64,000 bases of DNA. It comes from Streptomyces typhae. Lineage in GTDB: Bacteria > Actinomycetota > Actinomycetes > Streptomycetales > Streptomycetaceae. Shown here in pieces: positions 20,047 through 40,295 of this stretch. Under the pieces are notes generated by a model. It did not search any database. It worked only from the letters and a program-made list of their open reading frames with translations, and was not told the origin of the DNA. The stretch spans positions 124,001 through 188,000 of the forward strand of contig NZ_WPNZ01000003.1 of assembly GCF_009755605.1 (NCBI RefSeq), written 5' to 3'. Positions within the stretch are counted from its first letter, which is position 1. The number at the start of each line of letters is the position of its first letter. Both the position numbers and the translations under genes were made by a program.

Positions 20047-20219
20047 CCAGGGCGAGCGATGGCCAAGGCCACCGCTGGCCAGCCCTCAGGACGATGAGGC
20101 TGCACACTTCCCCCTGGGGGCGTGCAGAGGCCGTTCGAGCCGTGGTGGCAGTCAGCAAGCGCGCTACCGCAAGCTCACGCGAACGGGTACCAGAGCGTTC
20201 CTCAGGTCAGGCCCAAAGC

Positions 20220-20403
20220 GTTCACCGAGCGAACAGCAAGATTGTTCATCCAGCGAACACCCGGTCCTGTTCGCTCGATGAACAGGACCGCGGCTTTCAC
20301 GGCCGAGTGACAGGGCGCTCCGCGGGCGAGGCCCAGATCCGTTTACTGAGTGAACAGCAAGAATGTTCACTGAGTGAACATTCGACCTGTTTACTGAGTG
20401 AAC
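20220..20403. repeat. Array of 15-bp palindromes at 24-bp spacing (iteron- or parS-like)
   Basis: Six copies of a 15-base inverted repeat, best copy GTTCACTGAGTGAAC, start at 20220, 20244, 20269, 20341, 20365 and 20389. Variants include GTTCACCGAGCGAAC and GTTTACTGAGTGAAC. The spacing is 24 or 25 bases, and the gap between the two triplets is 72 bases, exactly three periods, so the array is in phase throughout. Degenerate copies may extend to about 20174. It lies just downstream of the relaxase gene. It fits binding sites for a replication initiator, a partition protein or a repressor; which one cannot be told. Confidence 0.85.
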
Positions 20404-21249
20404 GGGTCTGTCAAGCCGCACTCGGGTCCGCCAAGGTATCGACCGCAACTCTGCAAGCGCGTGCTTGCAGGGCTGATTGCTGTTGGCCGAGTAGCGGTCT
20501 TCCGTTACGCAGCAGCAGGGCGTACCCGGACCGTCGTACGCAGCACCGTGCCGGGCACCCGCCGCTGCTCGGCGCTTTGGTCGGCGAAGAGAGTAGCCGG
20601 GATGCGCTACCCGTGCCTTGGTCCCACGTTCGCGGATGGCGATGCGCGTGCCCGTGCTGTGGAGTCAGGATCGGCCGCCCGACACAGTGGTGGTACAGCG
20701 AGAAGCCCTGTGACCCAGCCAGCAGAGTCGGCACCAGGCGTGATGTCGGCTGGAGCAGCACGTTGGCTACGTGCAAAGGGCGTTGCAGAGTCACCAGGCA
20801 GTCATGTGTATCCGCACGTCGGTGAACTGGTTCTCGCCCGTCAGGTCGACGTCGAGGCCCGCGCGACTGCGGCCCAACAGGGGTACGACATGGCGGGTCC
20901 CAGCGCACCACGACGGCGTGTACAGGTCGCAGGTCGGAAGCACCGGCCCTGTCGTCGCCGACGTCGAGCCGCCTTTGTCCCGCTGCATGGCGGGGGCGCG
21001 GCCGTCCTCGCAGGCGTGGTCCGCGCGGGCCGGGGCGGTGACGGCGCGCTCGTGGCAGTCGATGCACCAAGCGGGCGCCTCGGCGAGATCGCGGTTGCGG
21101 CAGGGAGCCAGCGGACCCCCGTCCCGCGCATCGCAGTGGCTCACCAGCATGGGACTGGCTAGTGACGGGCACCTCTTCCGAAGGTACGGGACGTGCACGC
21201 GGCACGCGCACGACGCGGCATGGCCCGGCACGATGGCCGGACCCCGCTG
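20404..21249. other. Region without a confident gene
   Basis: Between the palindrome array and the DUF317 gene I see only one weak coding candidate (20791-21231, minus). The open frames on the plus strand overlap it and look like shadows. The array-proximal 400 bases may carry origin or regulatory DNA. Confidence 0.35.
20791..21231 (-). CDS. Possible Cys/His-rich hypothetical protein (146 aa)
   Basis: The leftward frame gives APAWCIDCHERAVTAPARADHACED, later PTCDLYTPSWCAGTRHVV and VDLTGENQFTDVRIHMTAW. Cysteine-histidine pairs and a C-terminal beta-strand pattern recall the small Streptomyces proteins of the DUF6907 type ('PsWC...H', then 'vtl'), but the match is loose. No clear ribosome site was found. 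It could be a genuine plasmid-type accessory protein or a decayed one. Confidence 0.35.
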   Translation of the reverse strand: MPGHAASCACRVHVPYLRKRCPSLASPMLVSHCDARDGGPLAPCRNRDLAEAPAWCIDCHERAVTAPARADHACEDGRAPAMQRDKGGSTSATTGPVLPTCDLYTPSWCAGTRHVVPLLGRSRAGLDVDLTGENQFTDVRIHMTAW

Positions 21250-21936
21250 TCAGGCGCGGTTCACGATGGTGAGGCGCTTCATGGCGCTCTGGGGCAGGCG
21301 GTGGCGTGCCACTGGTGCCGGGGAGGCGAGCGAGCCGGCGAAGACGGCGACCAGCTCGTTGGGGACGCTGGGGCTGAAGTTCGCGCACCAGAGGTAGGGG
21401 GCGCCGAAGGTGGGCTCGGCCCATGCCTGCCAGCCCAGCAGGTCCTCCCGCAGGTCGGCGTCCGCGATCAGGTCCGGCAGCATCTCCAGCGAGACGTGCG
21501 AGGCGAACCCGGGATCCGTGGCCGCGGTGCGAGGGCGGTCCACGTCGGGGATCCATCCCTGCGCGCTCAGCGCCGCCACCACCACCTCGGGCTCCGCGAA
21601 ACCGGTGTCGGGCACCGCGCCGGCGTCGAGCGCGAGGAGGAAGTCGTGCAGGACCTCGTGCGGCACGCCGGTGGTGAAGTACGCGTTCCACTGCGCCACG
21701 GCGCTGGCGGCGATGGTGCGGGCGGAGATCTGCAGGGCCACGGGTAGGCCGCCGAGCGTGAACGGGCTGGCGGCCAGGATCCATTCGGCGCCGCGCAGTG
21801 CGTCCGGACTCACATACAGCAGGGTGTCGCGGGCGGTTGGCCACATGCGCCAGCCCAGTGCGGTCAGCGTTTCGCCGATCCGCTCGGCGAGAACGTCATC
21901 GTCCCCCGCCAGATGGCGCGGGGTGACCCAGCGCAC
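21250..21936 (-). CDS. DUF317 domain protein
   Basis: The frame begins VRWVTPRHLAGDDDVLAERI at GTG 21936. An alternative CTG at 21987 sits six bases behind a GGAGG and would add 17 residues. The product contains YVSPDALRGAEWILAASPFTLGGLPVALQISARTIAASAVAQWNAYFTTGVPHEVLHDFLLALD, the signature layout of DUF317. Next come LSAQGWIPD and a C-terminal segment WAEPTFGAPYLWCANFSPSVPNELVAVFAGSLASPAPVAR that matches the second half of the domain. DUF317 proteins are frequent on actinomycete integrative elements and their function is unknown. It is followed closely upstream by the duplicated-domain gene on the same strand. Confidence 0.8.
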   Translation of the reverse strand: MRWVTPRHLAGDDDVLAERIGETLTALGWRMWPTARDTLLYVSPDALRGAEWILAASPFTLGGLPVALQISARTIAASAVAQWNAYFTTGVPHEVLHDFLLALDAGAVPDTGFAEPEVVVAALSAQGWIPDVDRPRTAATDPGFASHVSLEMLPDLIADADLREDLLGWQAWAEPTFGAPYLWCANFSPSVPNELVAVFAGSLASPAPVARHRLPQSAMKRLTIVNRA

Positions 21937-22854: not shown

Positions 22855-23003
22855 GGGACCATCCCTGCGGACGCGGGGAGCAGTGGTTGCCGACCGGCCG
22901 GTTCCGGCGACGACAGGGACCATCCCCGCGGGCGGGGAGCAGAGCTCGTCCCCGCCTTCGAGCGCGGGCAGGTTGGGACCATCCCCGCGGGCGCGGGGAG
23001 CAG
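22855..23003 (-). CRISPR. Type I-E CRISPR array 1, three repeats and two 32-bp spacers
   Basis: Repeats lie at 22855-22883, 22916-22942 and 22975-23003; on the plus strand they begin GGGACCATCCC and end GGGGAGCAG. The spacers (22884-22915 and 22943-22974) are both 32 bases, the I-E standard. Read on the minus strand the repeat has the usual Streptomyces I-E form, with a hairpin CCCCGCGCCCGCGGGG. The middle repeat lacks two bases. The array lies downstream of cas2 on the same strand, so the leader should be the 91 bases at 23004-23094 and the last repeat (22855), which has two changes, is leader-distal. Confidence 0.92.
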
Positions 23004-23094: not shown

Positions 23095-23457
23095 TTACTG
23101 GCGTCCGTAGCGTCGGCGCTTGGAAGCTTTGCTCCAGCCCGCCGGCGGACCTGATGAGGACGGCTGGCTGACGGCCGGGGCGTTGGGGTCGGGACGGCGG
23201 ATGAGGATGGTTCCTTCGTGGTCGGTCGGGTGCCATGCGTGGTCGTGTGTGCGGAAGGTGAAACCTTGCTCGTTGTTGGTGGTGTGGGCCATGAGGGCGC
23301 GGCCCTGACCGGCGTACTGCTGGACCTCGTTCCACAGGGTGTCGCGGATGCGGGCCGAGGGATTGCCGATGAACACCCCTGCAGAGATCTCCAACAGCCA
23401 GCGGGTGAGGAACCCACGCAGACCGGCGCGGCAGTTGGTGAGAACGATGACAGTCAC
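23095..23457 (-). CDS. cas2: CRISPR-associated endoribonuclease Cas2, subtype I-E
   Basis: The 120-residue Cas2e starts at GTG 23457, overlapping the cas1 stop. The first strand TVIVLTNCRAGLRGFLTRWLLEISAGVFIGNPSARIRDTLW is the I-E version of the ferredoxin-like fold, and FTFRTHDHAWHPTDHEGTILIRR is its characteristic C-terminal half. The basic tail (SKASKRRRYGRQ) is usual in actinobacteria. With Cas1 it forms the integrase complex that adds spacers. Nothing suggests inactivation. Confidence 0.93.
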   Translation of the reverse strand: MTVIVLTNCRAGLRGFLTRWLLEISAGVFIGNPSARIRDTLWNEVQQYAGQGRALMAHTTNNEQGFTFRTHDHAWHPTDHEGTILIRRPDPNAPAVSQPSSSGPPAGWSKASKRRRYGRQ

Positions 23458-24440
23458 CAGAGTTCGTTTCCGTAATCGTCCTCGGCCCCGTTACTGCCCG
23501 CGTAGTTGACTCCGGAGGCGACCTGCTGGCCTGCGTCGCTCTGGAGGGTGACCACGTCCCGGTCAGCGTCGGACGCGGAAGCGGACAGGGCTGCTTCGGG
23601 TGGCAGGAGCAGGCGTTGGATGTCGTCCACGCACCGTTCGAGGAGCGACAGTTCGTTGATGCGGTCGCGCACGGCGCGGCGGGTGCGGGGGCCGACGTCC
23701 TCCTCGCTCTCGGCGGCTACGTCGAAGGCGAGCGGGATGCCGATCTCCGTCTTGTAGAGGTCGGCGATGTCCAGGACGAAAGAGAGTTCGTGGCCGGAGT
23801 GGACGAAGCCGAGGGCCGGGCTGCATCCCAGGGAGGTGACCACGGCGTGGGCGATGCCGTACATGCACTGGGCGGCGGCCGTCACGGCCTGGTTGACCGC
23901 GTCGCCGCTGCTGAAGTCGCCGGGCACGTAGCGGCGGCCGCGCCAGGCGATGCCGGTGCGCTGGGCCTGCGCGCGGTAACAGTCCTTGACGCGCCGTCCT
24001 TCCCGACCCAGAAGTTCCTGGCGGGTGAGCCCTTCCGGGTCCTCGTCGGGAAAGCGCAGCCGGTACATCGCGCGGGCCACCGCAAGGCGGCTGCGCGGGT
24101 TCGCCCACTGACGCGCCTGTGCCTCCATCAGGGCCGAGGAGCGGCTGAGAGCGCGGCCGGAGGCGTAGTAGCGCACACCGTGTTCGCCCACCCAGCAGAC
24201 GGCCGCGCCCGTCTCGCCGAGCACGGTCATGGCTTGGTGGGTGACGCGTGTTCCCGGGCCCAAAAGCAGCGTGCCAATCGTCGCCGCCGGGATGTGTTTC
24301 GTGCCTTGCGCGTCTTGTGCCGTGATGGCGTTGGCATCGCGGTGCACGATGCAACGTTCGAGGTAGAGGAAGGACACGCGCTCACTGGTGCGGGTGAGCT
24401 GCCGGGGCGTGAGGTGCGGCCGCTTCGCGACGGACGTCAT
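23454..24440 (-). CDS. cas1: CRISPR-associated integrase Cas1, subtype I-E
   Basis: The product has 328 residues; the start MTSVAKRPHLTPRQLTR at 24440 overlaps the cas6e remnant stop. It contains the Cas1e landmarks: an N-terminal beta domain (LERCIVHRDANAITAQD, AATIGTLLLGPGTRVTHQAM, WVGEHGVRYYASG) and the helical catalytic domain, with the acidic residue after ALSRSSALMEAQ, the histidine in GFVHSGHELSFVLDIADLYK and the Asp in the same segment. It would insert spacers into array 1. It appears intact although the neighbouring cas6e is truncated. Confidence 0.93.
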   Translation of the reverse strand: MTSVAKRPHLTPRQLTRTSERVSFLYLERCIVHRDANAITAQDAQGTKHIPAATIGTLLLGPGTRVTHQAMTVLGETGAAVCWVGEHGVRYYASGRALSRSSALMEAQARQWANPRSRLAVARAMYRLRFPDEDPEGLTRQELLGREGRRVKDCYRAQAQRTGIAWRGRRYVPGDFSSGDAVNQAVTAAAQCMYGIAHAVVTSLGCSPALGFVHSGHELSFVLDIADLYKTEIGIPLAFDVAAESEEDVGPRTRRAVRDRINELSLLERCVDDIQRLLLPPEAALSASASDADRDVVTLQSDAGQQVASGVNYAGSNGAEDDYGNELW

Positions 24441-24991
24441 GCCGGAGTCCGGTCCCTGGTGAGAGGGGCCAGGGTGAGCAGTCCGCATCCGTAAGCTCGG
24501 GCCTTGCCGATGCCCTGGGTGAGGGTGCGGCGCAGGGCATGAGGGTCGGTGACCTCCAGCCGTCCGTCGAAGGTGACGGTGACGACGGTTACCGGCCCGC
24601 TGCGGCGGGCGCCCTCTCCTGCGCGGGACTTGGCGAAGGAAAGGGTGCGGGTGTCGGTGACCGAAAGTTCGTAGCGGTCGCCGGTGTGGGGTCGGCCCTT
24701 GTGGGTCGTGCCGTCGGGCAGCAGGCGGCGCTCTTCGGGCTTTTCGAGGATGCGGAAGCCGCAGCGCTGCTGGCGTTGCTCATCGAGCAGCCAGCCCATC
24801 TGGTGCACGAGGGTGACGTGAGCGGTGATCTTGCGGGGCTCGTCCTTGGTACGGCGGATGGTGTGCACGGGGTTCGCGGTCAGCCGGAAGGACCATCGGC
24901 CGCCTGCGCTCAGGCGGTCGAGAAGCGGCGTGTAGGGGCGGGTCTGCCAGCCGGGACGGTCCGGGTCGGCTGGTGCTGCGACCGGCCATCC
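24437..24991 (-). pseudogene. cas6e: cas6e, 5'-truncated
   Basis: In the frame ending at 24437, the C-terminal half of a Cas6e is clear: GWPVAAPADPDRPGWQTRPY, RWSFRLTANPVHTIRRTKDEPRKITAHVTLVHQMGWLLDEQ, and LEVTDPHALRRTLTQGIGKARAYGCGLLTLAPL, the glycine-rich C-terminal loop. Upstream of 24991 the frame continues as PCARCSRGLGSCV, unlike Cas6e, so about the first 90 residues are gone, including the expected catalytic His near residue 26. The remaining open part (GTG 24868) could at most make a 143-residue fragment. A deletion or rearrangement between here and the cas3 remnant explains the loss. Confidence 0.75.
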
Positions 24992-25297: not shown

Positions 25298-25531
25298 TTG
25301 ACCCAGTGGTTACGTTGGGCGTTAGTGATCATCGGTGTTGTCGTCACGTACTGGTTAGCCCTCCTGTTGGGGCAATGGCTGCCCCTCGCAGGCCCAGAGG
25401 ACGGCCAGACCAAGTGGGCAACCGCCACAACGCTGGCTGGCACGATCTCCGGCGTTGCGTGCCTGCCGATGGCCAGATGGGCGTGCAACGAACGCCGCCC
25501 GCAATGGAGTTCGCAAGACGCTGCTGACTGA
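25298..25531 (+). CDS. Small membrane protein (77 aa)
   Basis: A TTG at 25298 lies seven bases behind GAGGAGG (25284-25290). The product starts LTQWLRWALVIIGVVVTYWLALLLGQWLPLAG, a membrane helix, followed by a short loop (PEDGQTKWATAT) and a second hydrophobic segment TLAGTISGVACLPMARWAC with a basic tail. The alternative ATG 25291 gives a frame with no sensible pattern. It stands alone between the cas6e remnant and the cas3 remnant. It is probably cargo inserted when the cas operon was broken; function unknown. Confidence 0.55.
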   Translation: MTQWLRWALVIIGVVVTYWLALLLGQWLPLAGPEDGQTKWATATTLAGTISGVACLPMARWACNERRPQWSSQDAAD

Positions 25532-25736: not shown

Positions 25737-27217
25737 TCACTCCAAGCCGTTCTCGGGGCTGTAGCCAAGTTCGAAGCCTGCCAGCCGGGTTTGACAATCC
25801 TCATTGAGCGCGAGGATCAGCTGGTCAGACAGCCACGCGCCTCCTTGCCCTGCCAAGCGGGCACATACAGCTGCTCCAGGTCCGCGATCGCCGCTTCCAG
25901 CGTCTGGGCGTAGAAGAACTGCATCGGCAGCCGCAGCCCGCAACTTGCGGCCACCCGCCCGGCGAAGGGCGACGGTGCCTGGTCCTGCGGCAGAGCGATG
26001 CCGCCGCGCTGTCGACCCTTTCCGTCCTTCGCCAGCCACGGAAGGGTCATCAGAAAGCCGTCCGCGCGCTGCTGTACGACCACGACCTCCAAGCCCTCCC
26101 GGCTGTCTCGGACCTGCGCCCGTCCCGCCCGGGTGTCATCGACTTCACCGACTCCCGCCGCCCCCCATCCGATCAACGGCCGCCCCAGACAACCCACTTC
26201 GCCGAGCCGGAACGCCGACGCCCACTCGGCCTGATCCTCGGTGTGCCTCGAACAGGCCCTTCGCCTTCTCCATCGCCGCCTGCCACGACGGGGCCCGACC
26301 GGTTCCTGCCCATAGGCATCCTGAACGAGCGGGCTGATATCCGTCGGCAGCCGCACCGGAGACCGCTGGTCGTTCAGATGAGGCAGCAGCACCGCCGCCG
26401 ACCGCAGCAGCGCATACGCCCCGTACACCGCGCCCCCCCGCACGGGGTCCGGTACCGCCGCGTCCCAGTCCATTCCGGTCAGCCAGCACCGGGCGGTGCG
26501 CAGCCGCTCGGGCCGCTGCTCCTGGCCTGTGCCGCGCTGGCGGTGGTGGAGTCGGCCCATCCGCTGCAGCAGCAGGTCGATCGGGCACACGTCGCTGACC
26601 AGTAGGTCGAAGTCCACGTCGAGGGGCTGTTCGGCCACCTGGCTGGCCACCACGATGTGGAGTGCGTCCGGCCGCCCCTCCGCTTTGCCGGGCGGTCCGA
26701 AGCGGCGCAGTAGGTCACGGTCCTTCTCCGCACGTTCCACATCAACGAACGCGGAGTGCGCCATCGTCACAGCATCGCTGTCGAACCGCCCGCGCACGAG
26801 GCTGCCGGTCTCCAGCACACCCCGGACGGTGTTGCGGATCACGAGGACACATCCCACGCCATGCCTCTCCCGCTCTAGTCGGTCGGCCAGAACGTCCACG
26901 CCGTCGCCGAGCCGGCCCACGCATACGTCCGTGCCCCGGCCCGACGGCTCAGGACATCGCACCACCCGTGTGCCGCCGGGCGCGACCGCCGTCAGCCGCA
27001 GGTACGCGCCCTCGCCTACCGCGGCGCCGTCCTCCTGTGGAGCCGACTTGCCCGCGTACGCCGCGGCCAGCTCCTGCTGTCGCCCGGTCGGCAGCGTCGC
27101 ATGCAGCACGACAACCGGCACCTGGTACGCACTCAGCCGGGCCAGCACCCGGCCCAGGTAGACACTCATGTAGGCGTCGTAGGCGTGTGCCTCATCCCCG
27201 AGAACCCGATATGCGTC
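25737..27217 (-). pseudogene. cas3: cas3, truncated and frameshifted
   Basis: Read leftward, the remnant begins DAYRVLGDEAHAYDAYMSVYL, the DEAH box of the Cas3 helicase, followed by VVVLHATLP (motif III) and the second RecA domain ([42 protein letters not shown]-like). Everything N-terminal to it, namely the HD nuclease and the Walker A motif, is absent; CRISPR-type repeats abut at 27220. Further damage: near 26,300 the frame must shift to read SWQAAMEKAKGLFEAHR and shift back to EDQAEWASAFRL, and near 25,845 it shifts again to reach the true end GAWLSDQLILALNEDCQTRLAGF. The product cannot be a working nuclease-helicase. Confidence 0.88.
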
Positions 27218-27219
27218 GT

Positions 27220-27311
27220 GGGACCATCCCCGCGGGTGCGGGAGCAGCCAGTGACTGTGCGGTGCTCGAAGAGGGAGCGGGGACGACCATCCCCGCGGGC
27301 GCGGCAAGCAG
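27220..27311 (-). CRISPR. Two-repeat array remnant abutting the cas3 fragment
   Basis: 27220-27247 begins GGGACCATCCCCGCGGG and is nearly the array 1 repeat (28 bases). 27283-27311 carries GACCATCCCCGCGGGCGCGG with changes at both ends. They are separated by 35 bases, so the spacing is close to one repeat-spacer unit. The orientation equals array 1. The position exactly at the break in cas3 suggests recombination between repeats removed the 5' half of the gene. Confidence 0.7.
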
Positions 27312-27550
27312 CTCGGACCGGGGCTGCCCCTCACCAAGTGAGCCGGAACCCTACCCGCGCGTGCGAAGAGCAGTCCGGCGAGGAGCCCAGCTCGGCCCGC
27401 AGCCGGGGCCCCAGGCGCGGTACACAACTACCCACATCTACACCGGGGTTCATAGATCTAGAGAATCCGCCCTCTAGGGCACTCCGGCCTGCTAACGTCC
27501 TGTCCCGTTCAAGCAGCCAACCGTTATGAGCACTGGAGCGATGACGGAAC
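27312..27550 (+). promoter_or_regulatory. Upstream region of the Cascade operon
   Basis: This is the 239-base segment between the repeat remnant and cas8e. It becomes AT-richer from 27,420 to 27,530, which fits a promoter for the rightward cas operon. No consensus -35/-10 pair is convincing. Confidence 0.35.
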
Positions 27551-29160
27551 GTGCCTGACTCAAGAGCCGCGCCTGCACGCCGGTTTCAGCCCAGATGGGA
27601 TCCTCGAGAGGTCCCGTGCATCCCGGTACTGACTCTGGATGACCGGCTCATCGATGTGAGTTTGGTGGACCTGCTCCACGATGCCGACGAGCTGCGGACT
27701 GTGGAAGGCGGCACGCCGGGTGAGAAGGTCGCGGTCATCGAGTTCCTGCTGGCCATCTGCTACGCGTCCGGTACGTATCCGCGGTCGGCTGCGCAGTGGC
27801 CTGCATGGGTGGATCAAAAGGATGCTCTCCAGCCGGCTGCACAGTGGCTCGCCCAGCGGCCGGAGAGCGAGGTCTGGGATTTGTTCCATCCCTCGGAGCC
27901 GCTGGGACAGAACTCTCTGCTCGCACCGTTCCTCGACGAGTACGGCGCCGGACCGGCGCAACTGGTGATCGAACGGGTCGGTGACTACAACCAGTTCTTC
28001 GACCATCATCACCTGGAGCACCCCAGCCCGCTGCCGGTCGCCGCTGCCTTCCGGGCCATGCTCACCCAGCACGTGTATGGACCGGCCGGGCGCGCCAGGA
28101 TCTCGGGCAAGGAGACGCTGGGTGCCACCATCACCAACCTGGCCGCCGCCCGCCTGGGCACGCGCATCCGGGTCATCGCGCTCGGGGACACCCTGGGCGA
28201 GACGCTGCGCCTCAACCTGGCACCGGTCAACGGGCCCTCCGGGGAGCTGAACCGTACGTGGACCGTCGGTACGGAGCGACGGGGATTCACAACCAAGCCA
28301 AAGGGCCGGGCGGTGGCGGGCCCGGCCGATCTGCACAGCTATCTCGGCCGGTCGATCCTGCTGCGCCCGACCCCTGATGGCGAGTTCGTGGACCGGGTGC
28401 TGCTTGGTGCCGGTGAGCTCCTGTCGTTGTCGGACGAGCACATGCAGGATGCGGTGTACGCCACGCGGGCGGACGGCAGCAGCAAACCGCTGTGGGCGTC
28501 GGCGAACCGGGCGGTCTGGCGGCAGGCCCATGCCCTCTACGCCGCGGTGGCCGAGGCCCGTTCGCAGGCCGGGAGCAACGACGGTGGCACCTTGTACCGG
28601 AGGCTGGCGCTTTTTCCGGCCGCGGATGTGGCTCCCGAGCCCGGCCAGCAGCCCGCGCGCCGCGTCGACTTGTGGGCGGTCGGGCTGGTCGCCAGGCAGA
28701 CGACCGCCATCGCTTGGGTCGATGGGACGTTCCCGTTCGCCCCCGGACTGGAGGCCCGCCTCTACCTCGCGTCTTACCGGGGTTCACAGATCGCCGAGTT
28801 CGTGGCGGGCGCTCTGTACAAGGCGGCGTACACGGCGTGGCGCGTGACGTACCCGAACCCCAAACCGGCCGACAAAAGCAGTCAGATCGCGCGGTTCGAC
28901 GTGGGCGGCCTGCACTGGGCTGCGACGGAGGAACCGTTCGATGTGCTGATGGAGGAGACCACGCTGGGCGAGGACGTGCGGGCCCTGCTGTTGGAGTATG
29001 CGGAGACCGTCAGACTCACCGCGTGCAGGTTCCTGGCCGAAAGGCTCGATTCGCTGCCCAGAAGTGCTCAGGGATCCAAGGCCCGGGCCGCCGCCCTGAG
29101 ACGGTTCGACGACGAGTTGGCCCAGCCGAAGGCTCCGGCCGAACTCCGAGGGGAGTCCGC

Positions 29161-29164
<4 letters not shown>
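27551..29164 (+). CDS. cas8e: Cascade large subunit Cas8e (Cse1/CasA)
   Basis: This 537-residue protein starts at GTG 27551 (MPDSRAAPARRFQPRWDP). Typical Cse1 features are present: an N-terminal IPVLTLDDRLIDVSLVDLLHDADELR region, GTPGEKVAVIEFLLAICYASG, LFHPSEPLGQNSLLAPF, and a long alpha/beta region before the C-terminal four-helix bundle (LLEYAETVRLTACRFLAERLDSL). It recognises the PAM and recruits Cas3. No frameshift is seen, so Cascade assembly should be possible even though the adjacent cas3 is broken. The next ATG overlaps its stop. Confidence 0.92.
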
Positions 29165-32655
<3,491 letters not shown>

Positions 32656-32711: not shown

Positions 32712-32753
32712 TTGCTTCATGACCCGTACGGGTTGCTTCATGACCCGTACGGG
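32712..32753. repeat. Perfect 21-bp tandem duplication
   Basis: The unit begins TTGCTTCATGACCCGTACGG and occurs at 32712-32732 and again at 32733-32753 without a mismatch. It lies 56 bases after cas6e. It contains a CCCGTACGGG palindrome and could be a duplicated protein-binding site. Confidence 0.8.
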
Positions 32754-32785: not shown

Positions 32786-32865
32786 CGCCGGCCATCCCCG
32801 CACACGCAGGAGGAGAAGGACGCAGTGCTCCTAACGGGAGCCATCCCCGCAGGTCTGCGGGAAGC
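32786..32865 (-). CRISPR. Degenerate pair of I-E repeats after cas6e
   Basis: Two segments contain GGCCATCCCCGCACACGCAGG (about 32790) and GAGCCATCCCCGCAGGTCTG (about 32839), 49 bases apart. They keep the CCATCCCCGC core of array 1's repeat in the same orientation, but the second stem half is diverged. They are probable relics of an array end. Confidence 0.45.
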
Positions 32866-32920
32866 CCAACAGAGGCCGAGGCTACGCCCTGCGTCCTCGT
32901 CAGGACCAGCCCGATACACC

Positions 32921-33112
32921 TCACCGCCCTCCACGACGCCGCATCAGGATGCGCAGGGTCGCCCGGGCATCGCGCCGACGCTGCGGGGTGCGAAAGAGGA
33001 CGGACGAAGCCGCCACCGTCACGACCGCCACGCAGTAGACGAAAGCCGTGACGGCGGAAAGAACGACACCCGCCCGGAAGACGGGCTCGACGGCAATGTG
33101 CAGAACGGACAT
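32921..33112 (-). CDS. Small single-pass membrane protein (63 aa) divergent from the STAND gene
   Basis: ATG at 33112 sits five bases after GAGGGGGA, a strong ribosome site. The product starts MSVLHIAVEPVFRAGVVLSAVTAFVYCVAVVTVAASSVLF, one long membrane helix, and ends in a very basic tail (RTPQRRRDARATLRILMRRRGG). A longer frame to 33244 lacks a site. The gene is divergent from the large STAND gene, and the shared 132 bases hold both promoters. It could be a partner or simply a neighbour; membrane proteins paired with NTPases are frequent in defence loci, but this is inference. Confidence 0.6.
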   Translation of the reverse strand: MSVLHIAVEPVFRAGVVLSAVTAFVYCVAVVTVAASSVLFRTPQRRRDARATLRILMRRRGGR

Positions 33113-33244
33113 GCAAGTCCCCCTCGGGGTCGGCAGCCAGAGGTCTTCTCCCCCGGCGCGGTCCCACAGGTATCCACCTTCCCGAGGGCGTTCAGCAGAC
33201 TTCGCGAAGCCGGGAAAGCCGCATAGAACCTGGTCAGGGGGCAA

Positions 33245-36200
33245 ATGAAGATGCGTTCAGCGAACTCTTCCGCAGACGATGAGGATGGCGGTGCCGGGGA
33301 GGTACCGACGTTCATGAGCGATTTGAAGGCGCTGTACGAGGCCGCGGGTGGTCACAGAAAGCTGGGCTACCCGAAGTTGATTCGTGACGCCGCCGCAAGC
33401 GGTATCACCTTGATCAAACCCACGCTCACGGCCTGGCTGAACAAGAACCCCCCGGTGAAGCGGGAATACGTCGAGTACGTGATGAAGAGGCTCATCCCCG
33501 ATCTGAAGGAAAAGGCGGCCAGTCGATCGCCGCACTACCACCAGATCCCGGAGGCATCCTGGGCTGCCCGGCTCACAGCCGCGCAGAAGGTCAGCCAGAG
33601 CAACAAGGGAGGCCGCGGCTCCCGTGTGGGCGCGGCCTCCCGAGGCCGTCTGCTGCGCGGGGCCTCCCAGGCACTCCTCGATGTCCTGCCCGTCGACTTC
33701 GTCGGGCGCGATGAGGAACTGGACAGCCTGGAGAACTTCGTCACTGCTTCAAAGGGTTCTCCCAACTACTTGTGGTTGCAGGCGGGGCCGTGGGCCGGTA
33801 AAACAGGGCTCCTCTCCTGGTTCATCGCCCGTCGCCTGCCCGCCGGAGTCGATGTCGCGCACTACTTCATCGCCGGACGTCTGGGCACCGACCGCCGTGA
33901 CGGCTTCGTCCGCGCAGTCACGAGTCAGCTGGCCGCCGCCGTCGATGGCAAATGGCGCCCGCGCATGGACCTGGAGCAACCGAACCTGGACCCGCTGTAT
34001 AAAGCAGCGGCCCAGGCATGCGCCAATCATGATCGTCGTCTCATCCTGATCGTCGACGGACTCGATGAGGACGCCGACGCGGGTCCCGGTTCGGTCGGCA
34101 TCGCCGGGCTCCTGCCCAAGGACCCGCCTTGCGAGATGCGCGTCATCGTCGCAGGGCGCCCCCATCCGCGCGTGCCGCGGTTGCTGGCGACGGACCACCC
34201 ACTGCGCACCCCTGCCATCGTCCGGCCGCTGACCGAATCCCCTGACGCGCGCGTCATCCGGGATGCCGCGCTGACCGAGTTGCGCGCTCTTTTGACCGAT
34301 CCCGGCCTCGGACAGCATCTGCTGGGCCTACTCGTTGCGGCGCGCGGCGCCCTCACGGGGGCGGACCTCGCCGAACTTGCGGGGGTTACGCCCTCTGAGG
34401 TGCGCGGCAAACTCTCGGGTGTCACCGGCCGTTCCCTGGCTCCCACCCGCATCGATCTGCTGCCCCTGGACGTACGCACCGAAGCAGAGGCAGCGGCGGG
34501 ACGTCAGACATTCGTGCTGGCCCACCAAGAACTCCATGACACCGCACACCAGGAACTCGGCCGCAGCTTTCGCGCCACATGCACCACTGCCCTGCACGAT
34601 TGGGCCCGCCGATACGGCGACGAAGGCTGGCCCCACGACACCCCGAACTACCTGCTCACCGGCTATGCCCGCCTCCTGCACGCGCAAGGTGACGCCGAAC
34701 ACCTCACAGCCCTGGCTCTCGACGCCCGCCGCCAACTCCGCCTCCTTCACCGCTCCGGGCCGGACATTGCCCTTCTCCACCTCGACCTCGCCGCTTCAGC
34801 TCACACGGCCCGAGTGCCACCGCTGGGCACTACCGCGGCGATCGCCGCCTCCTGGGAGATGCTGCTGCCGCACGTGCGACCGCTGCCCCCAGCGGTGGCA
34901 CAGACCCTCGCCCGGCTCGGCGACGCGCCACGGGCCCGCGCCCTGATCAACAGCGCCGGGCGCGCCGTCGACAAGGCGCTGAACCTGGCCGGCGTGGCAC
35001 GCGTCCTGCACACCATGGGTGACACCCAAGCCGCTGCCACCGCCCAGGAGGCAGCCAGGTGTGCTCATCAGGCGCTGCGTGAGGCGGGCAGGTTCGGTGA
35101 CAGCGTCGACGAGGCGGAAGGCGCCGCAGGGCAAGCGGCTCTCGCCCTGCTGGAATCAGCTCTACCGGCGACCGACGACCCGACGCATGAGGTGAACGTT
35201 CCTCGCCGATCGGCCGCAGAGTACTGGGCCGCGCCCGCCGACACGGTCCGTGCTGCGGGCGGCAGCCGCGCCCGCCAGAGCCTCCTGGATGAGGCCCTGG
35301 CCCTGCTCCGCCGCACCCGCGGGGTGGGGACGGCCCGCCTGGAAGCATGGGCGCAGGCCGCCCGCCTGCTGGCAGCGGACCACCCTGAGCAGGCCGACGA
35401 ACTCCTGGACACACTGGAAGAACAAGCCGAAACCCTCGCCTGCGACGATCCAGCCGAAACAGACTCCGCAACCTGCGCGATCCAGCTCTGGCAGACGGTG
35501 GCCTGCGCGGCCCCCGACCGCGCCGAACGCCTCGTGGACCGCATCCTGGCCCACGCGCACGAGGTCTTCACCGATGCGCCCACCCTGGAAAACGTCGCCA
35601 CGCTCGCCATCGCCGTCCAATGCGCCGCGCCCTCCCGGCCCGAGCCAGCTGCGCGCCTTGTGTCCGCCGCCTGCCGCCATCTCGAGCACGTCCTGGGCCC
35701 GGACGCTGCCCCCATGACGCCGGCGGACACCTTCCACGTCGAGTTCGGCTTCCGGCACACCCTCGCCCTCCTTACGCAGGCACTCGGCGACATCGGTGCA
35801 CCACCGGATCGGATCACCCACGTACGGCAACTCGCCGACAGACACCTCCCAGCAGAGCCGCAAGAGCGGGCGGAACCGTCATCGGCCGAGGACGAGCTCG
35901 CCAAGCAATCCCACGAACTCTTCGGAACCGCCCTTCGCCTGGCCGAGAACGCCAACAGCGATGAGGCCGAGCATTACCTGGAGCAGGGCCTGGCACTCCA
36001 GCCCACCAGCATTCCCGGAAGCGGCCGCAGCCCCATGTGGCTCCCCGACCTGGCAGCCGCCCTCATCCGCGCTGACACCGCCGCGGACATCCAACCCCTC
36101 ACCGACCTGGCCCAGCACCCCGCCGACCGCGTCCGTCTTCACGCCGCTCTAGCCCTGGCGTACAGCGACACACACCACCTCGCCACGGCCCGCCGCCACG

Positions 36201-37153
36201 CGCAGGAAGCAGCCCACGCGGCCACCACCAGCCATCACTGGCCTTTTGCGGCGCAGGCGCTGGCAAGCGCCGGCGAGGTACAGGCCGCCGTCCGCCTCAT
36301 CGAAAAGCACCCGCAGCCGCGCAGAGCCGCAGCGCGGGCGGCATGGCGCACCACCGATCGCGCGGTGCGCGTCGCCGTCGCCACGGAGCTGTCCACCCAT
36401 GCCCCCGACGAGGCCGGCGAACTGCTCCTCCCGCTTCTCAAGCGCCTCGATGCCACCAGCCATGCCGTCCGAAGCACCGGCCTGCTGTCTCCCCTGGCCG
36501 GAATCCTGCCCGCCGCAGAGCACTTACCGCCCGCGCCACGAGAGCTCCTTGAAACCTTGCTGGAGCGAGCACGCGACCAGTCATCCCGCCACAGCCCCCA
36601 CTCCTGGCACCCCGAAGACGTCCTCGTGCGCGCATTCCTGCGCGTCAAGGCCGGCGAATACCCCGAGTGGGAACTGACGTGGCTGACACAGGACCTCACC
36701 GGCCGTGGGCCCGAACACTTCCCCACCCCCGCCCTCGCGGTCCTCCACGCAACCCTCGGAGACAGCCACACTGCCCTGCGGGTAGCAAATCAGCCCACCG
36801 GACCACTCCTCCGAGCTTCCGCACTCACCGCGGTCGCCACCCACTGGGCGCGTCTCCCGGCCCACCCTCACCCCGTGTCGGACCCCACCACAAAGACCCA
36901 CTTCACCCGAGCCATTCAGCACCTGGCGCAAAGCGCCTCATCAGCGACTCCTCATCCCGAAGCGTCCGCCAAAGCGCTTCACCACGTCCTGACCACGCCG
37001 GTCTGGCACCACGCCATACAGATCTTGTACAAGCTCGCCCCGGAGGCAATCACCGCCATCCGCGCTATCGCGCTGACACACCTCGACGAGCCCGCGCGCC
37101 GCAACTCCGCTGAGCCTAGGCATGGGATCGACGGTGAACACAGACTCCTTTAA
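33245..37153 (+). CDS. HTH-STAND NTPase with long helical-repeat C-terminus (1302 aa), inside the CRISPR island
   Basis: Start MKMRSANSSADDEDGG at 33245 follows a G-rich site; Met24 (FMSDLKALYEAAGGHRKL) is an alternative. Residues about 25-92 form an HTH-like unit (KLGYPKLIRDAAASGITLIKPTLTAWLNKNP). VGRDEELDSL at 153-162 opens a STAND NTPase. Walker A GPWAGKT is at 181-187, Walker B LILIVDGLDED at 267-277, and VIVAGRPHPRV is the sensor strand. From about residue 450 to the end the protein is a continuous series of Ala/Leu-rich helix pairs (TPR or ARM type), the usual ligand-sensing part. No nuclease, TIR, protease or other effector domain is recognised, so output may go through the HTH or a partner. 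It lies between Cascade and the second cas1-cas2. Confidence 0.8.
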   Translation: MKMRSANSSADDEDGGAGEVPTFMSDLKALYEAAGGHRKLGYPKLIRDAAASGITLIKPTLTAWLNKNPPVKREYVEYVMKRLIPDLKEKAASRSPHYHQIPEASWAARLTAAQKVSQSNKGGRGSRVGAASRGRLLRGASQALLDVLPVDFVGRDEELDSLENFVTASKGSPNYLWLQAGPWAGKTGLLSWFIARRLPAGVDVAHYFIAGRLGTDRRDGFVRAVTSQLAAAVDGKWRPRMDLEQPNLDPLYKAAAQACANHDRRLILIVDGLDEDADAGPGSVGIAGLLPKDPPCEMRVIVAGRPHPRVPRLLATDHPLRTPAIVRPLTESPDARVIRDAALTELRALLTDPGLGQHLLGLLVAARGALTGADLAELAGVTPSEVRGKLSGVTGRSLAPTRIDLLPLDVRTEAEAAAGRQTFVLAHQELHDTAHQELGRSFRATCTTALHDWARRYGDEGWPHDTPNYLLTGYARLLHAQGDAEHLTALALDARRQLRLLHRSGPDIALLHLDLAASAHTARVPPLGTTAAIAASWEMLLPHVRPLPPAVAQTLARLGDAPRARALINSAGRAVDKALNLAGVARVLHTMGDTQAAATAQEAARCAHQALREAGRFGDSVDEAEGAAGQAALALLESALPATDDPTHEVNVPRRSAAEYWAAPADTVRAAGGSRARQSLLDEALALLRRTRGVGTARLEAWAQAARLLAADHPEQADELLDTLEEQAETLACDDPAETDSATCAIQLWQTVACAAPDRAERLVDRILAHAHEVFTDAPTLENVATLAIAVQCAAPSRPEPAARLVSAACRHLEHVLGPDAAPMTPADTFHVEFGFRHTLALLTQALGDIGAPPDRITHVRQLADRHLPAEPQERAEPSSAEDELAKQSHELFGTALRLAENANSDEAEHYLEQGLALQPTSIPGSGRSPMWLPDLAAALIRADTAADIQPLTDLAQHPADRVRLHAALALAYSDTHHLATARRHAQEAAHAATTSHHWPFAAQALASAGEVQAAVRLIEKHPQPRRAAARAAWRTTDRAVRVAVATELSTHAPDEAGELLLPLLKRLDATSHAVRSTGLLSPLAGILPAAEHLPPAPRELLETLLERARDQSSRHSPHSWHPEDVLVRAFLRVKAGEYPEWELTWLTQDLTGRGPEHFPTPALAVLHATLGDSHTALRVANQPTGPLLRASALTAVATHWARLPAHPHPVSDPTTKTHFTRAIQHLAQSASSATPHPEASAKALHHVLTTPVWHHAIQILYKLAPEAITAIRAIALTHLDEPARRNSAEPRHGIDGEHRLL

Positions 37154-37308: not shown

Positions 37309-37961
37309 GCGCGTGCCGTCAGTATGGGCTTCCCCGACCGCCCGCCCCGCGACGGCCAAGGCCCACGCATCCTGTGGCGCGTCGACCGCACCACTGCCCC
37401 GGAAACCGCCCCCTTCATCGTCAGCCCCACCCGCCTGGACCTAACTCACCTCATCGAACAAGCCGACTGACCCACCCTGGGAAGGCCCAGGTGGACCACG
37501 TTCGCCTACGGACAGTTCCTAGACGCCCTGGCCTGGCAGCCGGGGACATCTGGGGTAGCCAGCTGATCGCCAACCCCGTCCGCCACATCCGCCTGCCCCA
37601 GGACGCACCGGGTGCCCGGACCAAACGCGCTGCTCACGTCTCCCCGCGCTACCAGATGCAGTGGCTCCTCAAGCGCCAGGAGAAGGCAGGCTTCAAAGTG
37701 CTCCCCAAGCCCGCCGACCGCCAACTGACGCAGTATGGAGACGCGTACGAGCTGATCGTGCGCGACCAGCAGCCGCTCCAGTTCCGCCGCCCCCCGGCCC
37801 AGCAGGCCGGGCAGGACGTCTGCTTCACCCGGGTCGCCTTCGACGGCCGCCTGCGCATCACCAACACCGACGCCTTCCGCCGCACCCTCACCCACGGCCT
37901 GGACAAATCCAAAGCGTACGGCTGCGGCCTCATGACGCTGGCCGCGGCAGGCGGACGATGA
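37309..37961 (+). pseudogene. cas6e: cas6e, second copy, with missing 5' end, nonsense codon and 5-bp duplication
   Basis: A Cas6e is readable in three pieces. MGFPDRPPRDGQGPRILWRVD through LDLTHLIEQAD is in one frame and ends at TGA 37468-37470, where relatives read EQAGWP. After the stop, readable as YGQFLDALA, the segment CTGGC is duplicated near 37,530 and shifts the frame. Then WGSQLIANPVRHIRLPQ continues through FDGRLRITNTDAFRRTLTHGLDKSKAYGCGLMTLAAAG to the normal C-terminus. The first about 40 residues, including the catalytic His, are gone. The stop still overlaps cas1 (ATGA), so it was once a normal cas6e-cas1-cas2 operon. Confidence 0.85.
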
Positions 37962-38896
37962 GCACCGTCAGCCGCCGCAGTACCTCGACCCCCCGAGAGC
38001 TGGCCCGCGTCGGCGACCGGCTCTCTTTCATCTACCTGGAGCGGTGCACCGTACACCGCGACGACAACGCCATCACCACGACCGACGCGGACGGCACCAC
38101 GCACATCCCCGCCGCCACCATCGGCACCCTCCTGCTCGGCCCCGGCACCCGCGTCACCCACCAGGCCATGTCCGTGCTGGGCGAGTGCGGAGCCGGCGTG
38201 GCCTGGGTGGGCGAGCACGGCGTGCGCTACTACGCAGGCGGCCGCGCCCTGACCCGCTCCTCCGCCCTGGCCGAAGCCCAGGCCAGCACCTGGGCCAACC
38301 GACGCACCCGGCTGAAGGTGGCCCGGGCCATGCACCGCCTGCGCTTCCCCGACGAAGACCCCGCCGGACGCACCCGTCAGGACATGCTGTCCATGGAAGG
38401 CCGCCGTCTCAAGGACTGCTACCGCCGCGAATCCGCCCGCACCGGCGTCCCCTGGAAGCGCCGCGACTACCACCGCGACAACTTCGCCGCAGGCGACGCC
38501 CCCAACCAGGCCGTCACCGCTGCCGCGCAGTGTATGTACGGCATCGCCCATGCCGTCGTGACCGCCCTGGGCTGCTCCCCCGCCCTGGGCTTCGTCCACT
38601 CCGGCCACGAACGCTCCTTCGTCCTGGACATCGCCGACCTCTACAAAACCGACATCGCTATCCCCGCAGCCTTCGACGCCGCCGCCGACGGCCCCGACGA
38701 CGTGGCCTCCCGCACCCGCCGAGCCCTGCGCAATCGCATCAAGGACACCAACCTCCTCGACCGCTGCGTCAACGACATCAAAACCCTCCTCCACCACGAC
38801 GACACCAGCGACCACCAGGACCGCGTGGCCCTGCAGTCCGACGGAGACGCCCACCTCGAAAGCGGCCGAAACTACAGTGACGAGGCGCTGTGGTGA
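37958..38896 (+). CDS. cas1: CRISPR-associated integrase Cas1, subtype I-E (second copy)
   Basis: The product has 312 residues and starts MSTVSRRSTSTPRELARVGDRLSFIYLERCTVHRDDNAI. It is clearly homologous to the first cas1 of the window along its whole length (AATIGTLLLGPGTRVTHQAM, GVRYYAGGRALTRSSALAEAQ, NQAVTAAAQCMYGIAHAVVT, GFVHSGHERSFVLDIADLYKTD) but differs throughout, so it is not a recent duplicate. Catalytic acidic and His residues are retained. It should serve array 2, whose repeat differs from that of array 1. Confidence 0.93.
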   Translation: MSTVSRRSTSTPRELARVGDRLSFIYLERCTVHRDDNAITTTDADGTTHIPAATIGTLLLGPGTRVTHQAMSVLGECGAGVAWVGEHGVRYYAGGRALTRSSALAEAQASTWANRRTRLKVARAMHRLRFPDEDPAGRTRQDMLSMEGRRLKDCYRRESARTGVPWKRRDYHRDNFAAGDAPNQAVTAAAQCMYGIAHAVVTALGCSPALGFVHSGHERSFVLDIADLYKTDIAIPAAFDAAADGPDDVASRTRRALRNRIKDTNLLDRCVNDIKTLLHHDDTSDHQDRVALQSDGDAHLESGRNYSDEALW

Positions 38897-39258
38897 CCGT
38901 CATCATCCTCGCTAACTGCCCCGCCGGCCTGCGCGGATTCCTCACTCGCTGGCTCCTGGAAATCTCCCCCGGCGTCTTCCTCGGCTCCCCCAGCGCCCGC
39001 ATCCGCGACCACCTGTGGGACGAAGTCCGCCAGTACGCCAACCAAGGCCGCGCCCTCCTCGTCCACCAAACCGACACCGAACAAGGCTTCACCTTCCGCA
39101 CTCACAACCACGCCTGGCATCCCACCGACCACGAAGGACTCACCCTCCTCCACCGCCCAGCCCCTCAAACCACCCACCCGGGAACCGACCGCCAGCCCAA
39201 GCCTCCGAAACAGAACTGGAGCAAGGCCGCTCAACGCCGTAAGTACGGCCGTCGCTAA
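38893..39258 (+). CDS. cas2: CRISPR-associated Cas2, subtype I-E (second copy)
   Basis: The 121-residue product starts at GTG 38893 (or 38890), overlapping the cas1 stop: VTVIILANCPAGLRGFLTRWLLEISPGVFLGSPSARIRDHLWDEVRQYANQGRALL. FTFRTHNHAWHPTDHEGLTLLHR and the basic tail SKAAQRRKYGRR match the first cas2 closely in layout. It is intact. It is followed after 128 bases by array 2. Confidence 0.93.
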   Translation: MTVIILANCPAGLRGFLTRWLLEISPGVFLGSPSARIRDHLWDEVRQYANQGRALLVHQTDTEQGFTFRTHNHAWHPTDHEGLTLLHRPAPQTTHPGTDRQPKPPKQNWSKAAQRRKYGRR

Positions 39259-39386: not shown

Positions 39387-39629
39387 GTCGTCCCCGCGCC
39401 TGCGGGGCTGTTCCCTCGCGGTCGCTGTCGTCATCGAGTACCCATGCGTCGTCCCCGCGCCTGCGGGGCTGTTCCCGTCGCCCGCGCCGCGGTGTCCCCG
39501 CGCAGCAGGTCGTCCCCGCGCCTGCGGGGCTGTAGCGACTGTCGCCCCTGCGTCTTTGGGGCTGTTCCAACTTGGGTGCCCGGGCCATCAGCAGTGCGGC
39601 GTGGTCCCGGCACATGTGAGGCTGTTATC
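39387..39629 (+). CRISPR. Type I-E CRISPR array 2, five repeats degenerating distally
   Basis: Repeats start at 39387, 39448, 39509, 39541 and 39601. The first two are identical over 29 bases and begin GTCGTCCCCGCGCCTGCGGG. The third has a changed end, the fourth follows after only three to seven bases (a lost spacer), and the fifth is strongly degenerate. Spacers at 39416-39447, 39477-39508 and 39569-39600 are each 32 bases. The decay towards the far end and the cas2-side leader agree on plus-strand transcription. The repeat differs from that of array 1 outside the hairpin. Confidence 0.92.
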
Positions 39630-40222: not shown

Positions 40223-40295
40223 GCTGCCGTAGCGCAGAAAGCAGAGCAGGCGCCTTCTAAGCGCTTGGCCGCAGGTTCGAGTCCTGCCGGGGGCG
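40223..40295 (+). tRNA. tRNA-Arg(TCT)-like gene, degenerate 5' half, probable att site
   Basis: The 73-base segment folds as a tRNA: the anticodon loop CTTCTAA (40254-40260, anticodon TCT) lies on a 5-bp stem GGCGC/GCGCT (one wobble), a perfect T arm GCAGG-TTCGAGT-CCTGC and the 3' acceptor strand CGGGGGC with discriminator G. The 5' acceptor strand GCTGCCG has one mismatch and one wobble against it. The D stem has one mismatch and the D loop lacks the conserved GG. A normal 3' half with a worn 5' half is what remains when an integrative element recombines into the gene. The copy may be non-functional. Confidence 0.6.

What the first reader, a model, noticed from the sequence alone, without database searches (positions are those of the whole stretch)
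33245..37153. Large HTH-STAND NTPase lodged between Cascade and cas1-cas2: candidate new defence gene
Seen: a 1302-residue protein with an N-terminal HTH-like unit, Walker A GPWAGKT, Walker B ending DGLDED, and roughly 850 residues of helical repeats, placed between an intact Cascade operon and a second cas1-cas2 locus. Known: STAND NTPases with repeat sensors (Avs-type and NACHT defence proteins) detect phage proteins. Inference: this one is an immune sensor without a recognised effector domain. Its output could be DNA binding through the HTH or the small basic membrane protein encoded divergently at 32921-33112.
Basis: partly seen in the sequence, partly recalled or inferred. Interest (0 to 1): 0.72.

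Follow-up and report, generated by a model that had tools for sequence, protein, structure and literature searches.

The report
Self-limiting CRISPR complex with immune switch
In this soil Streptomyces the CRISPR surveillance complex has lost its DNA-cutting partner and sits beside a large immune-type switch protein and a tiny membrane protein; it likely uses guide RNAs to spot phages and trip that switch, and one short guide matches the start of its own genes, so it would also turn itself down.

Summary
The gene at 33245-37153 is real: a 1302-residue STAND NTPase. It is already catalogued (PADLOC STAND_TPR, 1243 bits), and a review credits its link to Streptomyces type I-E loci lacking cas1, cas2 and cas3 to predictions from 2018 and 2020. 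So it is not a new defence gene. Nor is it lodged there by chance: in 28 distinct Cascade-STAND loci the same small membrane protein (smp) was present each time, while the cas1-cas2 pairs and cas3 stub around the window's copy look like relics of a canonical system.

What looks new is a two-repeat mini-array between Cascade and smp. Its 20-nt guide matches the start of the Cascade operon at 13 of its first 14 nt, with an AAC PAM; the one mismatch is nt 6, which type I-E Cascade flips out. The pattern co-varies in 12 of 14 related loci, against 16 of 24,000 shuffles. In a sister group the mini-array matches a site upstream of a small hydrophobic peptide gene (6 of 6 tested). One relative with no Cas1 or Cas3 hit keeps 138 repeats, some spacers matching Streptomyces phages.

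I infer an RNA-guided, Cas3-free alarm that represses its own operon. STAND triggering and smp action are untested.

The parts
33245..37153 (+). STAND NTPase (STAND_TPR), 1302 aa: N-terminal helical domain called Xre-HTH by PADLOC, NACHT-like core, helical repeats
32921..33112 (-). smp: 63-aa protein with one hydrophobic stretch and a conserved basic tail; divergent from the STAND gene
   Evidence: same gene next to STAND in 28 of 28 distinct Cascade-STAND loci; no Pfam family
32788..32865 (-). mini-array: repeat 32865-32837 with handle ATGGCTCC, 20-nt guide 32836-32817, repeat 32816-32788
32879..32884 (-). TAGCCT, -10-like element just upstream of the mini-array (TANNCT in 10 of 12 loci); promoter role inferred
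27519..27541 (+). predicted self-target: PAM AAC 27519-27521, protospacer from 27522; nt 1-14 match the guide except nt 6; about 29 nt before the cas8e start
27551..29164 (+). cas8e (537 aa)
29161..29745 (+). cas11 (194 aa)
   Evidence: Cas11e E 5.1e-14
29742..31091 (+). cas7 (449 aa)
31088..31936 (+). cas5 (282 aa)
31933..32655 (+). cas6e (240 aa), His-containing MHRTVMSGF motif kept
33190..33270 (.). pair of direct repeats GTTCAGC... (33190 and 33255, 65 bp apart), candidate operator of the STAND HTH; suggestive only
25817..27202 (-). cas3 stub without HD part and motif I, broken off at CRISPR repeats 27222-27304; relic
23095..24488 (-). cas1-cas2 of a canonical I-E system, with a broken cas6 upstream (about 24476-24958); relic module
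37958..39258 (+). cas1-cas2 of a canonical I-E system, with a broken cas6 upstream (about 37611-37934); relic module
39387..39569 (+). short CRISPR array with decayed repeats
22855..23003 (-). short CRISPR array, three repeats

Best explanation
This is a Cas3-less type I-E CRISPR system in which Cascade is likely to hand its signal to a STAND NTPase rather than to a nuclease, and in which a short guide from a two-repeat mini-array is predicted to steer Cascade onto the start of its own operon and repress it. Proposed chain: (1) Cas6e processes array transcripts and the mini-array into crRNAs (inferred; Cas6e and repeat stems are conserved). (2) Full-length array guides take Cascade to phage DNA beside an AAN PAM (inferred; phage-matching spacers shown in one relative). 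(3) A full R-loop is read by the STAND protein, which oligomerises like other STAND proteins (inferred, no direct evidence). (4) STAND, through its fast-evolving HTH, switches the divergent smp promoter or smp itself, and the membrane protein stops the cell (inferred). (5) The 20-nt mini-array guide pairs over only 14 nt with the cas8e start region, enough for binding but not for a full R-loop, so it would lower Cascade expression without tripping STAND; blocking Cascade, for instance by an anti-CRISPR, would raise expression.
For: Locus unity: 28 distinct Cascade-STAND loci all carry smp; Cascade is beside 20 of 25 long STAND_TPR matches. No Cas3: only the HD-less stub in this genome; Cas3e at E <= 1e-20 in 11 of 28 STAND-bearing genomes, this stub included; neither Cas3e nor Cas1 hit in 17 of 28. 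Self-guide: 13 of 14 nt, AAC PAM, mismatch only at nt 6; 12 of 14 group-1 loci, per-position identity 12,12,11,12,12 / 1 / 12,12,12,12,12 / 8,8,8 of 12, then 0 and 1 at nt 15-16; own pairs beat swapped pairs (permutation P 5e-5); 16 of 24,000 shuffled upstream regions reach the rule; the window differs from the usual guide at nt 12-13 and its target differs the same way. Guide length 18-21 nt against 32 in arrays. Cascade binds with a PAM and as few as 5 seed nt, while interference needs extensive pairing, and every sixth base is flipped out (PMC5904413, passages). Phage memory: spacers of L032, whose genome gave no Cas1 or Cas3 hit, match Streptomyces phages with AAC PAM. Its 138 repeats are mostly distinct (102), yet stem changes that keep a G-U pair outnumber C-A breaks 56 to 10. 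Cascade genes evolve slowly (pN/pS 0.19-0.49) and STAND faster (0.52-0.71).
Against: No contact between Cascade and STAND, no smp toxicity, no transcript and no repression has been shown. The window's own arrays are short, and the one own-genome array stretch tested (L174:3950-4350) matched no phage as a spacer, only phage-borne arrays. In L034, L035, L036, L040 and L116 a strict scan found no array in the fetched stretch (it also missed the window's small arrays), so there the self-guide may be the only guide. L041 and L044 break the rule. The 14 group-1 loci are related, so 12 of 14 is not 12 independent events. Three spacer matches come from one genome; arrays of L041 gave no clear Streptomyces-phage signal. 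Some STAND genes occur without Cascade, one of them with smp (L046).
Confidence: 0.5

Rival explanations
1. Cascade as guarded protein: the arrays no longer matter, Cascade's job is the self-guide (and, in the sister group, repression of a toxic peptide), and STAND or the peptide fires when Cascade is lost or blocked, as in CreTA or CrePA addiction modules.
For: The mini-array is present in more loci than long arrays are. In 6 of 6 tested loci with both a peptide gene and a mini-array, the guide matches a site 156-177 nt upstream of a 30-42-aa hydrophobic peptide, PAM AAC x5 or AAG x1, with mismatches concentrated at nt 6 and 12. CreA represses a toxin gene through Cascade and CreR represses cas operons (PMC12737573, passages).
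Against: The window and most group-1 loci have no such peptide; the guide there points at cas8e. A pure guard does not explain selected array stems and phage-matching spacers in L032.
Confidence: 0.25
2. Decaying remnant: Cascade and STAND are leftovers of an older system, kept by chance, and the guide-target match is an ancestral duplication.
For: The window is littered with broken cas3 and cas6 copies. L041 shows what decay looks like: lost guide, and stem changes that are neutral (18 to 18).
Against: Purifying selection on all five Cascade genes; the guide and target change together; the mismatch is placed at the flipped-out base.
Confidence: 0.1
3. STAND acts apart from Cascade as a stand-alone phage-protein sensor of the Avs or NACHT kind; Cascade next door is a separate defence in the same island.
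For: Avs3 is among the best structural matches; paralogues occur without Cascade; L046 has STAND and smp without Cascade in the fetched stretch.
Against: Cascade beside 20 of 25 long STAND_TPR matches, in two different gene orders. PADLOC gives no Avs model for P0001 at E <= 1.
Confidence: 0.15

Closest known systems
Minimal Streptomyces type I-E variant with STAND NTPase (PADLOC STAND_TPR; Shmakov 2018, Makarova 2020 as told in PMC12231136 and PMC8730458)
   Same: Cascade genes, STAND NTPase and small membrane protein together; no working Cas3; no adaptation genes belonging to it. The window is a member.
   Different: PMC8730458 (passages) says this module lacks an array; here several members carry arrays, one of 138 repeats, and nearly all of group 1 carry a self-targeting mini-array. 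The window also carries relic cas1-cas2 modules.
CreR, crRNA-like repressor of cas operons (PMC12737573, passages)
   Same: Guide outside the main arrays, seed-only match to the cas operon start beside a PAM.
   Different: Here in a Cas3-less, STAND-linked system; guide shortened to 18-21 nt; repression not tested.
CreTA and CrePA Cascade-repressed toxins (PMC12737573; PMC8501985 and PMC9458426 seen as abstracts in listings)
   Same: In the sister group the mini-array guide matches a site upstream of a small hydrophobic peptide gene.
   Different: Not present in the window; linked to STAND and smp; peptide toxicity unknown.
Avs STAND defence proteins
   Same: STAND NTPase with long helical C-terminus; Avs3 among top fold matches.
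   Different: No Avs profile match and no effector domain found; linked to Cascade.
Canonical Streptomyces type I-E
   Same: cas1-cas2 of the window are 45-79% identical to those of five canonical loci.
   Different: STAND-linked cas8e is only 25-29% and cas7 28-35% identical to the canonical ones: a separate Cascade lineage; none of five canonical loci has the self-guide.

Membership tests
PADLOC STAND_TPR | profile match over HTH, NTPase and repeats | tested here: met
   PDLC01173 E 0, 1243 bits, two stretches
PADLOC STAND_TPR | linked to a cas1-less type I-E Cascade | tested here: met
   Cascade adjacent; the cas1-cas2 pairs present here are of the canonical lineage
STAND NTPase class | Walker A and B and STAND fold | tested here: met
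   GPWAGKT, DGLDED; Apaf-1, 6mfv, Avs3 top Foldseek matches
STAND NTPase class | ligand-driven oligomerisation | not testable with these tools
   needs protein work
Avs | Avs profile and N-terminal effector domain | tested here: not met
   no Avs model in PADLOC at E <= 1; no effector domain in Pfam
SARP/AfsR regulators | BTAD and DNA-binding domains of SARPs | tested here: not met
   none among Pfam matches up to E 1
Type I-E CRISPR-Cas | Cascade subunits | tested here: met
Type I-E CRISPR-Cas | Cas3 helicase-nuclease | tested here: not met
   only an HD-less stub in the genome
CreR | guide with repeats and PAM-flanked partial match to the cas operon start | tested here: met
CreR | Cascade-dependent repression | not testable with these tools
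   needs reporter or RNA-seq
CreTA | guide aimed at a toxin gene promoter | tested here: not met
   in the window the guide points at cas8e and no such peptide was seen; met by sequence in 6 sister loci

The most novel reading that the evidence does not exclude
A CRISPR immune system rewired from DNA cutting to a self-limiting alarm: Cascade reads an old, no longer renewed but still selected phage memory, triggers a STAND switch that acts through a small membrane protein, and is held down by a truncated guide aimed at its own operon, so that phage anti-CRISPRs release more of it; a sister branch wires the same mini-array to a peptide toxin.
Probability: 0.4. Interest if true: 0.85.

Novelty: new variant of a known kind. 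Interest (0 to 1): 0.62.

Why it matters
The function of STAND-linked minimal type I-E loci has been open since 2018, with no experiment according to the review seen here. A guide that co-varies with its own target shows that Cascade is kept as an RNA-guided DNA binder without Cas3, gives a quick assay (cas8e expression with and without the mini-array), and supplies the PAM and guide rules needed to test whether a full match trips STAND. If it does, this is a programmable, nuclease-free link from DNA recognition to a STAND switch.

Tried and rejected
Rejected: new gene family (one search names it); SARP-type regulator; chance lodging.

Led nowhere or weak: genome-contig scan with the single protein found no relative, the alignment did. 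Sequence search of the PDB gave one chance-level hit. The direct-repeat operator: repeats 63-65 bp apart in many group-1 loci, but in the window a random shuffle does as well in 11 of 100; strong only in L032, L034, L037 and L039. A looser guide scan that used every stem-handle candidate as a guide also hit shuffled upstream regions, in 0 to 17 of 50 shuffles per locus; the fixed-guide control is the one to trust. Group 2 loci: 0 of 14 have the cas8e match with a mini-array guide; L163 has one chance-like 9/10 match from a non-array stem. For the peptide sites three registers of the guide were tried and the 8-nt-handle register kept; L156 has equally good sites without the PAM; L163 has a peptide but no guide was found, so 6 of 7 peptide loci were tested. 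Canonical control: L183 has one 10/10 match from a non-array stem into cas1, none upstream of cas8e or cas3; cas8e itself was found by tblastn in 3 of the 5. Spacers: L041:60-1400 no phage hit, L041:12080-12920 mixed hits, L044 mixed hits. PF01867 saw the window's own intact Cas1 genes only at E 1e-6 and 1e-5, so Cas1 absences are less secure than Cas3e absences. The last genome pattern search was mis-specified by one base and does not match even the window; it says nothing. L116 is cut off inside cas7 and its STAND gene is split, with the other part elsewhere in that genome (L115), so it counts as a broken locus.
Full report
The gene. The 1302-residue ORF is at the stated place with the stated motifs. 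Pfam gives NPHP3_N (E 2.3e-7) and a sub-threshold NACHT match; PADLOC gives STAND_TPR at 1243 bits, described as a predicted ATPase fused to Xre-HTH and TPR repeats, associated with a cas1-less I-E system in Streptomyces. A predicted structure of residues 1-560 (pLDDT 81) matches Apaf-1, the STAND-TPR protein 6mfv and Avs3 best; residues 507-1302 are all helical (pLDDT 86). The closest protein is 96% identical, from Streptomyces silvensis. A review tells that Shmakov 2018 and Makarova 2020 described such loci and proposed a role in cell death or dormancy, without experiments (PMC12231136, passages). A 2022 essay says the module has no Cas3, no adaptation genes and no array (PMC8730458, passages).

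The locus. Cascade (27551-32655, +) is complete. Then come a mini-array, the 63-aa smp (-) and STAND (+). Around them lie two cas1-cas2 pairs facing outwards, each behind a broken cas6, and a cas3 stub ending at CRISPR repeats. These cas1 and cas2 genes are 45-79% identical to those of five canonical I-E loci, whereas cas8e is 25-29% (three loci where it was found) and cas7 28-35% identical to the canonical ones. So the window holds a STAND-type system beside the wreck of a canonical one. The stub is the only strong Cas3e match in this genome.

Conservation. A genome scan gave 79 loci with relatives of the STAND family; 13 have Cascade within the fetched stretch and 14 have smp, and the other loci mostly match only the NTPase part. 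Two gene orders occur, one colinear and one divergent. By Cas8e identity to the window they fall into group 1 (63% or more; 14 loci) and group 2 (about 50-59%; 14 loci); no tree was built. Of 25 long STAND_TPR matches (E <= 1e-150) 20 have Cascade beside them; L114, L115, L166, L169 and L171 do not. Cas3e at E <= 1e-20 was found in 11 of 28 genomes with the locus (the window's stub among them) and Cas1 in 9 of 28; 17 of 28 gave neither. Cascade genes show pN/pS of 0.19-0.49 against ten group-1 loci, STAND 0.52-0.71 (uncorrected counts). Within STAND the HTH region (residues 51-100) is less conserved (0.41) than residues 101-500 (0.62-0.71).

The self-guide. On the minus strand, repeat 1 ends in the handle ATGGCTCC and the guide starts CGTTAGGAGCACTG (32836 leftwards). 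The start of the Cascade operon reads AAC-CGTTATGAGCACTG at 27519-27535, about 29 nt before cas8e: 13 of 14 nt, with nt 6 the mismatch. I first saw the likeness by eye in a few loci and then tested it. It holds in 12 of 14 group-1 loci. Identity by position is 12, 12, 11, 12, 12 at nt 1-5, 1 at nt 6, 12 at each of nt 7-11, 8 at each of nt 12-14, then 0 and 1 of 12; the PAM is AAC in 11 and AAT in 1. Guides fit their own targets better than swapped ones (permutation P 5e-5): most loci have GAGCAG, while the window has GAGCACTG in both guide and target, and L038, L040 and L116 vary at nt 1-4 in step. With the guide fixed, 16 of 24,000 shuffled upstream regions meet the rule. The two exceptions are L041, where the guide has decayed, and L044, where no mini-array was found; in both the site itself has changed. 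Five canonical I-E loci show no such match upstream of cas8e or cas3. The guide is 18-21 nt long in all 12 loci, against 32 nt in arrays, and a -10-like TANNCT lies just upstream of the mini-array in 10 of 12. In E. coli a PAM and as few as 5 seed bases suffice for Cascade binding, interference needs extensive pairing, and every sixth base is flipped out (PMC5904413, passages). In a type I-B system crRNA length switches between repression and cleavage (PMC10551041, start of abstract in the listing). CreR RNAs are known cas-operon repressors (PMC12737573, passages). My searches listed no paper on such guides in STAND-linked loci; the library lacks most subscription papers.

A sister use. Seven loci have a further small hydrophobic ORF of about 30-42 aa. 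In the six that also have a usable mini-array guide (L111, L112, L154, L156, L172, L039) the guide matches a site 156-177 nt upstream of that ORF, 10-12 of 14 nt, PAM AAC in five and AAG in one; identity by position is 6, 6, 6, 5, 6, 1, 3, 4, 4, 5, 6, 2, 6, 6 of 6, with lows at nt 6 and 12. Shuffled guides reach the observed match with frequencies of 0.0175 or less in each locus, and only the identity among 720 permutations reaches the observed sum. This resembles CreTA; toxicity is unknown.

Arrays and phages. L032 (Streptomyces hydrogenans), whose genome gave no Cas1 and no Cas3e hit, has 138 repeats, 102 of them distinct. In its stems G-U-keeping changes number 56 and C-A breaks 10, and pairing (0.957) exceeds all of 1000 shuffles (maximum 0.943), so the RNA stem appears to be under selection although the array is no longer renewed. 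In L041 the same counts are 18 and 18. L032:560-4100 matched 68 phage records at E <= 0.1, 60 of them Streptomyces phages, mostly through one spacer in Holliday junction resolvase genes. The spacers against phages Urza and Gilgamesh have an AAC PAM; for PapayaSalad AAC lies two bases further out, fitting a shortened 30-nt spacer. AAN is the PAM reported for a Streptomyces I-E system (PMC12231136, passage). The window's own arrays are short; other listed exact stem matches cluster at C23:112072-112285 and 115763-115842 outside the window, and the one own stretch tested hit only phage-borne arrays.

Mechanism. Shown: the gene set, the lack of Cas3 here, the co-varying guide and target, selected stems and phage spacers in a relative. 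Inferred: binding of Cascade at its operon start and repression; activation of STAND by a full match; smp as output; the direct-repeat pair as HTH operator (weak in the window itself). I give the whole chain 0.5 and the self-guide alone about 0.85.

Noticed in passing
phage records OL455886.1 about 34.6-34.9 kb (L178) and MT521991.1 (L179); similar hits in other Streptomyces sanglieri phages: An unannotated CRISPR-like array of about six diversified type I-E-style repeats lies between phage genes 53 and 54. It could feed guides or decoy repeats to host Cascade.
   Followed up: partly
JX006077.1 about 12.9-13.1 kb (L180): Saccharomonospora phage PIS 136 carries four near-identical type I-E-style repeats between two hypothetical genes.
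   Followed up: no
window 25298-25531 (+): 77-aa ORF with two hydrophobic stretches between the left cas6 relic and the cas3 stub, no Pfam match.
   Followed up: no
window 32712-32753: Two identical tandem copies of a 21-bp unit TTGCTTCATGACCCGTACGGG just after cas6e.
   Followed up: no
L046 (Streptacidiphilus jeojiense): STAND and smp side by side without any Cascade match in the fetched stretch.
   Followed up: no
window 12896-13028 (-): Rfam Scr6925 Streptomyces sRNA, 54.9 bits.
   Followed up: no
window 40223-40295 (+): tRNA gene (Rfam, 49.7 bits) just right of the right-hand cas1-cas2 and array, a possible island edge.
   Followed up: no
window 20219-20404: Repeated palindromic units of the GTTCACTGAGTGAACA kind in an intergenic stretch.
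   Followed up: no
window 21250-21936 (-): 228-aa protein with a DUF317 (SPDY) match, a domain I recall from actinobacterial mobile elements.
   Followed up: no
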